Positions 22,124 to 27,894 of a DNA stretch of 56,281 nucleotides are shown piece by piece. Numbering within the stretch: position 1 is the stretch's first letter; every line of letters begins with the position of its first letter. Origin of the DNA: Bacteroidales bacterium (lineage in GTDB: Bacteria; Bacteroidota; Bacteroidia; Bacteroidales; UBA932). The position numbers were made by a program, and so were the translations under genes. Location of the stretch: contig JAFRXO010000010.1 of NCBI GenBank assembly GCA_017443465.1, positions 1 to 56,281 on the forward strand. Direction: 5' to 3'. The notes below the pieces were generated by a model. That model did no database searches and was not told the DNA's origin. It was given only the letters and a program-made list of their open reading frames with translations.

Positions 22124-23221
22124 CTAGCAGAATCTGCCAATGAAAAGAATCAGGCCGGTTTCGTTGTCAGTGATGACATAGAAGAACGGGCGGTCGGCTT
22201 TGAAGACAAAGTCGGGGTTAAGAGAAGAGGCGCCATCGATTAGTTCTGTGACTGCCGCTGCTTCTGTCCCTTCTTCGTCCGTCTTCACCCGTGCAACATG
22301 GAGACCAAAAAGGTTATCATATCCAAAAGGCTCCATTGAAAAATTGAGAGCTGTTTCAGTATCGAATTTAGGAATGGAGACTTTTACATCGCTTTTTGTC
22401 AATCCTTTGCGCGCAGCCTGGAAATCTTCAAAACTCAGAGCATCCTCATCGCTAAGTATGAAAGTCATGGAAAAAGAATCATTGGCATACGGCATTTCAA
22501 GAGCAGTCACAGATGAAGACGAGTAATAATTGCAATAATCCCTTTTGTTCATCATCGGTACTTTCCTCACATTCCCGTCTGCGCCGGTAAAATCCCCCAT
22601 CTTAGTATTATCTACCTCGAATGGATTAGCCCATTCGTGCCTGAAGTACATTGCATTGCATAATACCCTCGGGTAGTCCGGTCTGATGTCAACTTTTGGG
22701 ATATTGAGGAATTCCTTGGAGTTTTTCATGAGCCAGTCATGGATTTTGTCCATAACAGCCTCATAATCTGTGAAATCCTCATCGAAGATCTCTGCCTTGA
22801 AAAAGTCTTTTGCAGCGGAATTCAGACTTTTATCTTTCGGCAACAACGTATTGTTGAATAAGGCATTGGTCAGAGAACTCTCATTTCCTTTCCCCTTTTG
22901 ATTGAGTTTCTTCCGGATCTTCTCAAAAAGAGAATTGCCCGACTCCAGCGAATTCTGCTCCAAAAATTCCACTAACTCAGGGTGTTCTACTGAATTGGCC
23001 TCCATCCCAAGAGTGAATTCTATGCTCAAAGGAGAAAAGGCATATGATTCTTTTTTGCCTGAGAAAAACTCATCGTACAAATTGAAAGCAGCCCTGTTAA
23101 GCTGCTCTATACTTGCAACCTCCTCCTTATCGAAAATCACATCCTCCACCTCCGGATCATCCTTTCCGCAAGAAGAAAGGATAATGCAGGCGGCAGTCAA
23201 AAATAATGTTAATCTCTTCAT
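22124..23221 (-). CDS. Serpin (serine/cysteine protease inhibitor) lipoprotein
   Basis: The 365-residue protein starts MKRLTLFLTAACIILSSC, a lipoprotein signal with the cysteine at 18, so it is likely surface or periplasmic. The serpin fold is clear: NRAAFNLYDEFF, YAFSPLSIEFTLGM, NALFNN, LCNAMYFRHEWANPF, EMPYAND and the C-terminal FKADRPFFYVI. The reactive-loop hinge EEGTEAAAVT is of the inhibitory type; by spacing the scissile bond falls near DGAS-S, but this is uncertain. Bacterial serpins block host or competitor proteases. Its last 77 bases are repeated at the end of aroC. A TAnnTTTG box lies about 50 bases upstream. Confidence 0.93.
   Translation of the reverse strand: MKRLTLFLTAACIILSSCGKDDPEVEDVIFDKEEVASIEQLNRAAFNLYDEFFSGKKESYAFSPLSIEFTLGMEANSVEHPELVEFLEQNSLESGNSLFEKIRKKLNQKGKGNESSLTNALFNNTLLPKDKSLNSAAKDFFKAEIFDEDFTDYEAVMDKIHDWLMKNSKEFLNIPKVDIRPDYPRVLCNAMYFRHEWANPFEVDNTKMGDFTGADGNVRKVPMMNKRDYCNYYSSSSVTALEMPYANDSFSMTFILSDEDALSFEDFQAARKGLTKSDVKVSIPKFDTETALNFSMEPFGYDNLFGLHVARVKTDEEGTEAAAVTELIDGASSLNPDFVFKADRPFFYVITDNETGLILFIGRFC
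22125..22201 (+). repeat. 77-bp direct repeat, copy 2 (serpin tail)
   Basis: This is the 3' end of the intact serpin gene. It is the likely source of copy 1 at 20722-20798, 1.4 kb away in the same orientation. Confidence 0.9.
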
Positions 23222-23411: not shown

Positions 23412-24101
23412 CTAAAGTGACCGGATAGCCTCTTCAATCACGGAGGCAAGGTCCGGGACGCTACGGATGATAGGAGCGGCGAAAGAAATCATCTGGAGGA
23501 CCTTCGCTTCGGCCTCCGGGATGCCACGTGAACGCATATAGAACTGCTCCTCTTCATTCAGCCTTCCGACAGTGGCCCCGTGAGAGCACTTCACGTCGTC
23601 GGCATATATTTCCAGCTGGGGCCTGGTGTCAATCCTGGCATCTTCTGACAGAAGGATGTTGTGACTTTCCTGGTAGGCTTCGGTCTTCTGGGCGTCAGGT
23701 GCCACGATGATCTTCCCATCAAAGGCCGCGTTAGAACTTCCTCCCAGCAATCCGTCGAATATCTGCCGGGATTCACAATGTCCCACCCGGTGATGCATCA
23801 CCACATTGAAATCCAGCCTGTCCTCTCCATTGCACAGGAAAAGGCATCGGACCTGCACCGAAGAGCCTTCACCAGCCAGATCCACTGTCAGGGGAACATC
23901 GGCGGAACCTCCAGGGAGAAAGACCAGATTGAGCTCCAGAGAGGCATCACGCCCTACCACCACATACCGCGGAGGCAGCTCAGGTGACAGGAACGTCCCG
24001 AGGGCGGACTGCCCGTCACCTACGACGAGGGTTTCCCCGTCATATGTGATTTCAGTCGGGACATAATGTCCGCAGTCCACTGCAGGAAGTTTCGATGACA
24101 T
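23412..24101 (-). CDS. sufD: Short SufD-like iron-sulfur assembly protein
   Basis: SufD joins SufB and SufC in the SufBC2D scaffold that builds Fe-S clusters. The start at 24101 (MSSKLPAVDCG, in a CATATG) gives 229 residues, about half of the usual 420-450. The beta-helix core and C-terminus are recognisable (QESHNILLSEDARIDTRPQL, CSHGATVGRLNEEEQFYMRSRG), while the N-terminal helical domain is missing. There is no sign of a break, since the start follows the sufC stop by four bases. It is either a naturally minimal SufD or one shortened early; no cysteine desulfurase (sufS) follows. Confidence 0.85.
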   Translation of the reverse strand: MSSKLPAVDCGHYVPTEITYDGETLVVGDGQSALGTFLSPELPPRYVVVGRDASLELNLVFLPGGSADVPLTVDLAGEGSSVQVRCLFLCNGEDRLDFNVVMHHRVGHCESRQIFDGLLGGSSNAAFDGKIIVAPDAQKTEAYQESHNILLSEDARIDTRPQLEIYADDVKCSHGATVGRLNEEEQFYMRSRGIPEAEAKVLQMISFAAPIIRSVPDLASVIEEAIRSL

Positions 24102-24105
24102 ATGT

Positions 24106-24858
24106 CTAGAATTTGTCAAATCCCTCGTTCTCAATTTCTTCTACAAGTTCATATCCTCCAGAACGCACGATTCTGCCATCCTTCAGGATATGTACCTCAT
24201 CCGGAGCGATGTACTCCAGGAGCTTCTGGTAATGTGTGATGATTATTGCCGAAGTCTCCGGTGTGTGCATTGCCTTCACCCCGTCGGCCACTATCTTCAG
24301 GGCATCCACATCCAGGCCGCTGTCGGTCTCGTCGAGTATCGCGAGAACCGGTGAAAGCATGGCCATCTGGAAGATCTCGTTACGCTTCTTCTCTCCGCCG
24401 GAAAAGCCCACGTTGACCTCGCGCTTGGCCAGTTCAGGAGGCATTTTCACGAACTCCATCTTCTCCCTCAGGAGTTTCAGGAAGGCACCGGCAGCAAGAG
24501 GCTCTTCACCCCTGGCCTTACGCTGGGCGTTGACGGCGGTCTTTATGAAATTAGTCATGGAGACCCCGGGGATTTCCACCGGATACTAGAAAGACATGAA
24601 TATGCCTTCTGCTGCCCTCTCTTCAGGTTTGAGAGCCAGGAGGTCTTTCCCCCGGAAAGAAATCTTCCCAGAAGAAACCTGATAGACCGGACGCCCGGCC
24701 AAGACCGAACTAAGGGTACTCTTGCCGGCTCCGTTGGGGCCCATGACGGCATGGATCTCCCCACGGCGGATCTTCAGGTTCACCCCTTTGAGTATCTCCC
24801 TGCCCTCGATTCCGGCATGGAGGTCTTCTATATCCAGCAGGTACTCATCCATTTTCAT
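24106..24858 (-). CDS. sufC: SufC Fe-S assembly ATPase, interrupted by an in-frame amber codon
   Basis: The 251-codon frame would encode a full ABC ATPase: Walker [10 protein letters not shown] (40-48), then EGIFMSF-[TAG]-YPVEIPGVS, the signature FSGGEKKR, Walker [11 protein letters not shown] and the H-loop ITHYQK. The TAG at 24586-24588 is codon 91 and replaces the Q-loop glutamine that is nearly invariant in SufC (FQYPVEIPG in E. coli). Reading frame and all else are intact, so it is one CAG-to-TAG change. TAG ends other genes here, so reassignment is unlikely. Possible explanations are a sequencing or assembly error, a young pseudogene, amber suppression, or two half-proteins with restart at the GTG at 24579. 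The start (CATATG) overlaps pnuC by four bases. Confidence 0.9.
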
Positions 24859-25508
24859 ATGTTTCTTTTATAGAGCTTGTACCACGTAAACAGCGACCAG
24901 ATCCCGTTGATCAGGTAGAGCCCGCTCACTATAGGCATGAACGACAGGCCCGCGCTCAGGTACAGGCATATGTTTGCGATATTCACCATCAGCCACACTA
25001 TCCAGCAGTCCCATTTCTTCTGGGCGGAAAGGAACTGTGCCAGAAGGGTCAGCATGAGAACCACAGCATCCAGCCAGGGAGTAGGATCGGGAACGAATGT
25101 GCCTTTGAACCAGGAGGTCCCGAGCCTGCTGAGGACGAAGCCCCAGACCAGGCCGGCACCGGCGACGAAAAGCAGGGCCCAGCCCCTCTGCTCCCAGGTA
25201 AGGGTGCTTACCTTCAGGTTGGAGGAATTGGCTGCGCTCTCTTCCCCCTCACGCGGATGCGACCAGCGCCACTGCCCGAAGAAATTAATGGCAAAAGCCA
25301 CCGGCTGGAGCAGCATCGCTGAATAGAGGTGCTTCTGGGCGAACATCACGAAGAGCAGGATGTTGTAAAGGTAACCCACCCAGAAATTGAACTTCTTGTT
25401 GCGGCCGGCCAGGAAGACGCACAACAGGCCGGTAACCACGGATACCAGCTCCAGGAGACTGACTCCGTTACCCCCGAGGGTAAAGATTATGTTATCTATG
25501 CTGAACAT
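24855..25508 (-). CDS. PnuC-family vitamin/riboside transporter
   Basis: This 217-residue inner-membrane protein has about 7-8 hydrophobic segments and PnuC family features: [32 protein letters not shown] and the C-terminal [20 protein letters not shown]. PnuC proteins carry nicotinamide riboside and relatives carry thiamine or riboflavin by facilitated diffusion; the substrate here is unknown and no riboswitch is seen. It is embedded in the suf operon: one base after the sufB stop and overlapping the sufC start by four bases. That location is unusual. Confidence 0.85.
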
Positions 25509-25509
25509 T

Positions 25510-26958
25510 TTATCCTACAGATCCTTCAAGATTGACTGACAAAAGTTTACGGGCCTCGACGGCGAACTCCATCGGGAGCCTGGAGAGAACCTCGTGGGCA
25601 TATCCGTTGACGATAAGCCCCACGGCATCCTCCATGGCTATGCCCCTCTGGTTACAGTAGAAGAGCTGCTCGTCGCTGATTTTGGAAGTGGTGGCCTCAT
25701 GCTCAACTACAGCTGTCGGGCAGGCGTTCTTTATTACCGGGAAAGTGTGGGCTCCACACCGGGAGCCTATCAGTAGGGAATCGCACTGGGAGAAGTTACG
25801 TGCCCCGGATGCCCCGGGATTCATCCTCACCAGGCCACGGTAGCTGTTCTGGCTCCGACCGGCGGATATGCCCTTGCTGACTATCCGGCTGCGGGTGTTG
25901 CGTCCCAGATGGATCATCTTGGTGCCGGTGTCAGCCTGCTGCATATTGTTGGTCAGGGCCACTGAGTAGAATTCAGAGGAGGAATTGTCGCCTTTGAGTA
26001 TGGTGGAAGGATACTTCCACGTAATGGCGGAGCCTGTCTCGACCTGCGTCCAGCTCAAGTGCGACCCGCTGCCCTTGCATATGCCTCTCTTGGTCACTAG
26101 GTTAAGGATTCCGCCACGGCCTTCTGCGTCTCCGGGCCACCAGTTCTGTACCGTGGAATACTTCACATCCGCATCCTTCTCCACGATTATCTCGACTACG
26201 GCCGCATGGAGCTGGTTCTCATCCCTCATGGGAGCGGTGCAGCCTTCCATATAGCTTACATATGAGCCTTCGTCCGCCACTATAAGGGTGCGCTCGAACT
26301 GTCCGGTACCGGCCGCATTGATCCTGAAATAACTCGAAAGCTCCATCGGGCATTTCACTCCCTTGGGAATGTAGCAGAAGGTCCCGTCGCTGAAGACAGC
26401 GCTGTTGAGAGCAGCGTAAAAATTGTCCCCCGGGGGGACCACTGTGGCCAGGTATTTCTTCACCAGCTCGGGATACTCGCGCACTCCCTCGGAGAAAGAG
26501 CAGAAGATTATCCCCTTGTCGGAGAGCTCCTTACGGAAGGTTGTATTCACTGAAACCGAATCGAAGACGGCATCCACAGCCACCACCCCGGCCAGGGCTT
26601 CACGTTCACGGACAGGAATCCCGAGCTTCTCGAAAGTTTCTTCGAGCTTTGGATCTATCTCCTTGGGACGGTCGGCGTTCTTCTTCGGGGCGGCGTAGTA
26701 TATGATGTCCTGGAAATCTATCTTCGGGATGTCCAGGTGTCCCCATCGGGGCATGGGCATCTTAAGCCAGCGCCTGTAGGCATCCAGACGGAATTCCAGC
26801 AGCCACGCCGGCTCTTCCTTCAGGGCGGAAATCGTCCTGATAATGTCCTCGTTAAGGCCTTTGGGAACGAAATCCTGGGCCACGTCGGTGACGAAGCCTT
26901 CCTTGTACTCTTTCTGCTGGAATCCCTGCAGGATATCGTTTCCTTCCTTCTTGTCCAT
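25510..26958 (-). CDS. sufB: Fe-S cluster assembly scaffold SufB
   Basis: This is the first gene of the suf unit. The 482-residue protein has the expected length and motifs: [40 protein letters not shown], the cluster and FAD region ending in [15 protein letters not shown], and the C-terminal [21 protein letters not shown]. Together with SufC and SufD it forms the scaffold that receives sulfur and iron. A TAnnTTTG box lies about 25 bases upstream at 26983-26990. Confidence 0.95.
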
Positions 26959-27027: not shown

Positions 27028-27894
27028 TCACCTGCGGAACAGACCGAATACTGCGGAGCCCGACCCGGACATGGATGCATATGCCGCACCCTCCCTGTAA
27101 AGGCCGTCCTTGATTTCGGCAAGCTGAGGATGGAGGGCGAAGACGGTAGTCTCGAAATCATTGAAAAGCAGGTCTTTCCATGACTCGACCGGAAGATTGA
27201 AAATCTCTTTGAAAGGCATAGGATGCACTGGGCCGGCGAAGCGCGGATCCTCGCGCGGAGTGATTCCTCCATATGCCTCACGGGTAGAAACGTGTATCCC
27301 TTCAGGGACCACCACCTTCAGTTCATATCCGTCCAGGACCGGAAGACCGGCCGGAGTGAGGATCTCTCCCCTGCCCTCGCCCAGCATCGGCCTGCCATAT
27401 ATGAAAAACGCGCAGTCACTTCCCAGTCGCGCCGCATATGAGGCCAGCGCTGCCTCGTCCAGGCCGAGAGAAGCTATGGAACTGAGCATCTTGAGAGCCG
27501 CCGCGGCATCGGAGGAACCTCCCCCGAGTCCCGCTCCGACTGGCGAGGTCTTCTCGAGGAAAATCTTGACGCAAGGCATGGAAAAGTCCTGGGACAGAAG
27601 GGCATATGCTTTGGCCGTGAGGTCGGAAAGGGGGTCCCAGTCAACTCCTTCGGCACGCGCTATGGTAATCATGAGTTTCCCGCCTGGCGAAATGGCCTGC
27701 CTGAGGGAATCTCCGGAATACTTTCCGGCAAGTGTCGAACTCGTACGGCTGTAGTCATCCCCGGTAATGATTTCAAGGGTGTCATGGTAAGCCTTGCAGG
27801 GCACGAAGAGGGTATTCAGGTCATGATAGCCGTCCGGCCTCTTACGGAGCACTTCGAGCCCCAGGTTAACCTTTACTTCCGGGAAAGAGATCAT
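27028..27894 (-). CDS. ispE: 4-diphosphocytidyl-2-C-methyl-D-erythritol kinase
   Basis: This GHMP kinase phosphorylates CDP-ME in the non-mevalonate isoprenoid pathway. The 288-residue protein shows PEVKVNLGLEVLRKRPDGYHDL at the start, the ATP-binding glycine-rich motif SPVGAGLGGGSSDAAAALK at about 108-126 and the C-terminal SMSGSGSAVFGLF. The start ATG is in a CATATG and has a TAnnTTTG box 20 bases upstream. It stands alone, with its stop about 40 bases from the suf promoter. Confidence 0.95.
   Translation of the reverse strand: MISFPEVKVNLGLEVLRKRPDGYHDLNTLFVPCKAYHDTLEIITGDDYSRTSSTLAGKYSGDSLRQAISPGGKLMITIARAEGVDWDPLSDLTAKAYALLSQDFSMPCVKIFLEKTSPVGAGLGGGSSDAAAALKMLSSIASLGLDEAALASYAARLGSDCAFFIYGRPMLGEGRGEILTPAGLPVLDGYELKVVVPEGIHVSTREAYGGITPREDPRFAGPVHPMPFKEIFNLPVESWKDLLFNDFETTVFALHPQLAEIKDGLYREGAAYASMSGSGSAVFGLFRR

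What the first reader, a model, noticed from the sequence alone, without database searches (positions are those of the whole stretch)
24586..24588. Amber codon at the Q-loop glutamine of sufC
The frame is intact on both sides and the family sequence FQYPVEIPG reads F-TAG-YPVEIPG, so one CAG-to-TAG change breaks an otherwise complete, normally essential ATPase. TAG ends aroD-aroA, mdh and the phosphodiesterase gene, so it is a stop in this genome. Possibilities are assembly error, a strain-level mutation, amber suppression inserting Gln, or function as two chains with restart at the GTG at 24579, which would part Walker A from the signature motif.
Basis: partly seen in the sequence, partly recalled or inferred. 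Interest (0 to 1): 0.75.

Follow-up and report, generated by a model that had tools for sequence, protein, structure and literature searches.

The report
Lone stop codon in sufC
A gut-type bacterial genome, probably assembled from a community sample, shows one stop codon inside its only found copy of an iron-sulfur assembly gene; the evidence fits an isolated assembly or strain-level glitch better than a new way of reading the genetic code.

Summary
sufC on the minus strand reads GIFMSF-TAG-YPVEIPG, TAG at 24588..24586. All 100 distinct relatives aligned (109 fetched loci) have Gln there (88 CAG, 12 CAA). The frame on both sides is otherwise normal SufC. TAG works as a stop: 39 of 141 orthologue-like genes end in TAG, 34 within 5 codons of the relative's end, and sufC itself ends in TAG. 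RF1 is unbroken; none of 54 tRNAs has a CTA anticodon. The assembly, about 96% complete, shows no second sufC, no NifU/IscU scaffold and no SUFBD protein beyond sufB and sufD, so a fixed amber should be very harmful. Against a same-genus genome, 176 alignments (64,960 residues) gave no other clear stop inside a gene; one short case stays unresolved. Isolated stops also occur in genus members: G098 sufC (TAA) and G185 secA (TAA). Best reading: an isolated wrong or minority base in the assembly. Next: a real, recent loss of function. Suppression, recoding and split chains lack support. Reads are needed to decide.

The parts
24586..24588 (-). in-frame TAG at the Q-loop Gln codon of sufC (next base T)
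24589..24849 (-). sufC part before the stop (Walker A side); start codon probably ATG at 24852 or 24858
   Evidence: TIGR01978 positions 1-83 of 243
24109..24585 (-). sufC part after the stop (signature and Walker B side)
   Evidence: TIGR01978 positions 85-242 of 243
24106..24108 (-). terminal stop of sufC, also TAG
25510..26958 (-). sufB, unbroken
   Evidence: NF008773 and TIGR01980 over cut-off
24855..25508 (-). pnuC-like gene between sufB and sufC, as in most relatives printed
   Evidence: TIGR01528 over cut-off
23412..24101 (-). sufD, 229 aa, unbroken frame, TAG stop
   Evidence: TIGR01981 183.1 bits, below its cut-off of 222; SUFBD_core over cut-off; stop

Best explanation
The TAG is an isolated wrong or minority base in what looks like a metagenome-assembled genome: a sequencing or consensus error, or a rare variant taken into the consensus. 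The growing population most likely carries an intact sufC that makes the usual SufC ATPase of the only Fe-S assembly pathway found. Shown: a single event in an otherwise conserved gene; no second sufC or other scaffold found; TAG used as a stop; no suppressor found; isolated stops in conserved genes of other genus members. Inferred: that SUF is essential in this organism, that the genome is a metagenome bin, and so that the base does not represent the growing population.
For: 101 of 103 columns conserved at 97% or more agree with the family; the two misses are the amber and L194M. No second sufC, no NifU_N although 12 of 14 control genomes ring, SUFBD_core only in sufB and sufD. Where SUF is the only system it is described as essential (PMC6006206, passages). 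In 176 alignments (64,960 residues) of 856 kb of this genome against 795 kb of G016, 10 alignments hold 11 stop letters: sufC; seven with stops only near alignment ends; one antisense to a frame of over 1,000 codons in both genomes; one short alignment (86 residues, C76:123881-123624) unresolved. Internal stops among the 150 matches that each genus search lists: sufC 2 of 150 (this one and G098 TAA), secA 1 of 150 after checking (G185 TAA), sufB 0 of 150. Without the given case that is about 2 in 270 thousand codons (my arithmetic), so a few per genome are expected. No 16S rRNA was found, and the genome is in 81 contigs.
Against: No reads could be seen, so an error is not shown. From the common codon CAG the change is a C-to-T transition, whereas only 4 of the 73 other one-step nonsense changes in this gene are transitions; this fits a biological mutation slightly better than random error. 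Relative to SufB, this SufC is the most divergent of 62 (residual -0.046, z -2.7), and it has 11 differences at columns at least 90% conserved against a median of 2 in the others, though five others have 16 to 19; some relaxation is possible. The assembly shows no clear excess of internal stops. The listed matches are the best 150, so broken copies ranking lower were not seen.
Confidence: 0.62

Rival explanations
1. A real, recent nonsense mutation in the sampled strain leaves SUF broken; the lineage is short-lived or lives on a second copy missing from the assembly.
For: C-to-T transition from the common codon; SufC diverges somewhat more than SufB predicts; the assembly is about 96% complete, so a second copy could be missing.
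Against: The part after the stop is within the range of constraint (rank 8 of 62); the excess lies before it (rank 1 of 62), so the stop is not old. No alternative scaffold was found.
Confidence: 0.28
2. The amber is read through by a suppressor or near-cognate tRNA, giving some full-length SufC.
For: Passages of PMC5289835 say that tRNA-Gln can misread UAG in yeast and E. coli. The tRNA set found is incomplete (only two Leu tRNAs).
Against: No CTA anticodon in 54 tRNAs; the 55th, weak Rfam hit reads as CCG; a pattern for CTA anticodon arms gave two places, a Glu and an Arg tRNA matching outside the anticodon, against 10 for the reversed control pattern. RF1 unbroken. Only Gln-TTG was found, not Gln-CTG. 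The base after TAG is T, a low-readthrough context for UAG in yeast data quoted there, though the same paper finds +4U to matter mainly for UAA in bacteria. 34 of 39 TAG-ended orthologue-like genes stop at the relative's end.
Confidence: 0.08
3. SufC works as two chains, the second restarting at GTG 24579.
For: GTG is the third codon after the stop.
Against: None of the 100 aligned relatives is split; Walker A and signature would lie on different chains and the Q-loop Gln would be lost.
Confidence: 0.02

Closest known systems
SufC, Fe-S cluster assembly ATPase (TIGR01978; PDB 2d3w, 2d2e)
   Same: Both pieces match with nearly abutting model positions; suf operon context; 101 of 103 highly conserved columns agree.
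   Different: One TAG in place of the conserved Q-loop Gln.
Isolated stops in conserved genes of other genomes of the genus (G098 sufC TAA; G185 secA TAA)
   Same: A single stop in an otherwise well aligned gene.
   Different: Other stop codon, other site. G185's lies about 60 bases from the end of a 3,385-base contig; G098's in a 31,058-base contig.
TAG-to-Gln recoding known from some gut phages (recalled, no call)
   Same: TAG at a Gln position.
   Different: Here TAG is a regular terminator, RF1 is present, no CTA-anticodon tRNA was found, and one gene is affected in the part examined.

Membership tests
SufC | match to the SufC equivalog model over its length | tested here: inconclusive
   N piece 114.8 bits (cut-off 212.8), C piece 227.5 bits, positions nearly abutting; the product as written stops at the amber
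SufC | Q-loop glutamine | tested here: not met
   TAG; Q in 100 of 100 aligned relatives
SufC | suf operon context | tested here: met
   sufB, pnuC, sufC, sufD in order
TAG-to-Gln recoded genome | many in-frame TAGs at Gln positions | tested here: not met
   no second clear internal stop in 64,960 aligned residues, one short case unresolved
TAG-to-Gln recoded genome | TAG not used as terminator | tested here: not met
   TAG ends 39 of 141 orthologue-like genes, 34 at the expected place
amber-suppressed genome | tRNA with CUA anticodon | tested here: inconclusive
   0 of 54 tRNAs and none by pattern, but the assembly and tRNA set are incomplete
isolated assembly or consensus error | reads disagree with the consensus base | not testable with these tools
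   no reads held

The most novel reading that the evidence does not exclude
The amber is real and fixed in a living lineage whose only Fe-S pathway depends on readthrough of UAG at the SufC Q-loop, so that SufC dosage is set by translational misreading.
Probability: 0.04. Interest if true: 0.75.

Novelty: not a real feature. Interest (0 to 1): 0.12.

Why it matters
If it were fixed and functional, an essential pathway would be running on stop-codon misreading. As it stands it is a caution: a conserved gene in a genome stated 96% complete can carry an isolated stop, and similar cases turn up at very roughly one in a hundred thousand codons in the matches listed for this genus (checked in 40 and 51), so single-codon oddities in such genomes need read support.

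Tried and rejected
the first alignment of relatives used the wrong strand for loci matched on the minus strand; discarded and redone; a codon-score scan for in-frame stops in 456 kb did not place the sufC case among the 45 printed of 1,574 pairs; dropped as insensitive; a first comparison with 400 kb of G016 gave 32 orthologue-like hits and used the antisense frame over sufC; replaced. One search flagged a TGA in G148 secA; no stop lies inside the aligned gene, so it was taken out of the count. A chimeric join inside sufC: G+C and third-position G+C of the two parts are alike (0.556 and 0.644; 0.535 and 0.66); no tree was made. Papers: searches found 0; one search found 1 and one search found 5 (listings only); one search found 5, of which I read passages of PMC6283598 (sufC conserved in all 79 genomes analysed there); one search found 36 and listed 12, of which I read passages of PMC5289835 and PMC13092985 (other tRNA changes); one search found 2, passages read of both (PMC12584684 calls sufB and sufC likely essential in an archaeon). 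I found no paper on sufC essentiality in Bacteroidales in these searches.

Full report
What is there. The window is a whole contig (C50) of a genome of 2.65 Mb in 81 contigs, stated 96.4% complete and 2.9% contaminated. No 16S rRNA was found in it, which fits a metagenome bin; this is inferred. The genus seems to be Candidatus Cryptobacteroides: a shared contig length of 50,803 bases suggests that G068 is Ca. Cryptobacteroides avicola. On the minus strand lie sufB, a pnuC-like gene, sufC and sufD, an order seen in most of the relatives printed (output cut in the middle). sufC has one internal stop, TAG at 24588..24586.

Is it more than chance? The codon is Gln in 100 of 100 distinct relatives, CAG in 88 and CAA in 12, from 109 fetched loci, 9 of them repeats. 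These were the best matches of two capped searches. Of 103 columns conserved at 97% or more the window differs in two, the amber and L194M. The two pieces match TIGR01978 at positions 1-83 and 85-242 of 243. PMC6006206 (passages) describes a strictly conserved Gln in the SufC Q-loop, and the Q-loop as the motif for interaction with partners.

Is TAG a stop here? Of 249 long frames in 456 kb, 68 end in TAG. Of 141 orthologue-like genes with an aligned C-terminus, 39 end in TAG, 34 of them within 5 codons of the relative's stop. sufC and sufD end in TAG. RF1 is unbroken and over its cut-off. ARAGORN on the loci of the 55 Rfam tRNA hits and on the sampled stretches gave 54 tRNAs, none with a CTA anticodon; the 55th hit, weak, reads as CCG. 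A pattern for a CTA anticodon arm with a T-loop gave two places, against 10 for the reversed control; both are tRNAs already known, Glu and Arg, matched outside the anticodon (read). Only two Leu tRNAs were found, so the set is incomplete and a suppressor is not excluded. The base after the amber is T; passages of PMC5289835 quote low readthrough of UAG-U in yeast, say that tRNA-Gln can misread UAG in E. coli, and find +4U to matter mainly for UAA in bacteria.

Could the cell live without it? No second sufC was found, no NifU_N domain although 12 of 14 control genomes ring, Bacteroides ihuae among them, and SUFBD_core only in sufB and sufD. That SUF is essential where it is the only system is from PMC6006206 (passages); for this organism it is inferred.

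How special is it? In 176 non-overlapping alignments (64,960 residues) between 856 kb of this genome and frames of 795 kb of G016, 10 alignments hold 11 stop letters. Checked one by one: sufC has its stop at position 88 of 248; seven have stops only near an alignment end; one lies antisense to a frame of over 1,000 codons in both genomes; one, 86 residues at C76:123881-123624, is unresolved. No split pair suggesting a frameshift was printed. Across the genus each search lists its best 150 matches. sufC: 2 of 150 have an internal stop, this one and G098 with TAA elsewhere (G098 seen). With 400 genomes, 374 matched, and 1 of the 150 listed rows had a stop, the window's own. secA: 2 of 150 flagged; G185's TAA is inside the gene near a contig end, G148's TGA is not inside, so 1 of 150. 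sufB: 0 of 150. Without the given case that is about 2 in 270 thousand codons by my arithmetic from query lengths; copies ranking below the lists were not seen.

Is the gene decaying? Mixed. Relative to SufB this SufC is the most divergent of 62 (residual -0.046, z -2.7). It has 11 differences at columns conserved at 90% or more against a median of 2, while five others have 16 to 19. The excess lies before the stop (rank 1 of 62); the part after it is within the range (rank 8 of 62). An old truncation should relax the part after the stop first, so the stop is recent or not real.

Verdict. I hold an isolated wrong or minority base most likely (0.62), a real recent loss of function next (0.28), readthrough 0.08, split chains 0.02. 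Nothing here settles the first two; reads would.

Noticed in passing
L249 (G098:C12:6089-6820): A second genome of the genus has sufC with a single internal stop, TAA, at another site.
   Followed up: partly
L251 (G185:C43, near the contig end): secA with one internal TAA in a 3,385-base contig.
   Followed up: partly
G000:C76:123624-123881: A short alignment (86 residues) with G016 holds an internal stop; gene or chance frame is unresolved.
   Followed up: partly
window 24855-25508: A pnuC-like gene sits between sufB and sufC, in most relatives printed too.
   Followed up: no
window 22124-23221 and 27028-27894: An ispE-like frame, which follows sufD in many relatives printed, lies upstream of sufB here, and a serpin-like frame follows sufD (both names recalled from the sequence).
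   Followed up: no
window 24589-24849: The part of SufC before the stop diverges more than SufB predicts, with Ala where 90 of 100 relatives have Trp eight residues before the amber.
   Followed up: partly
G000 C66:6909-7251 and C81:55-333: A Thr-Tyr-Gly tRNA cluster is present twice; duplication or a contaminating contig.
   Followed up: no
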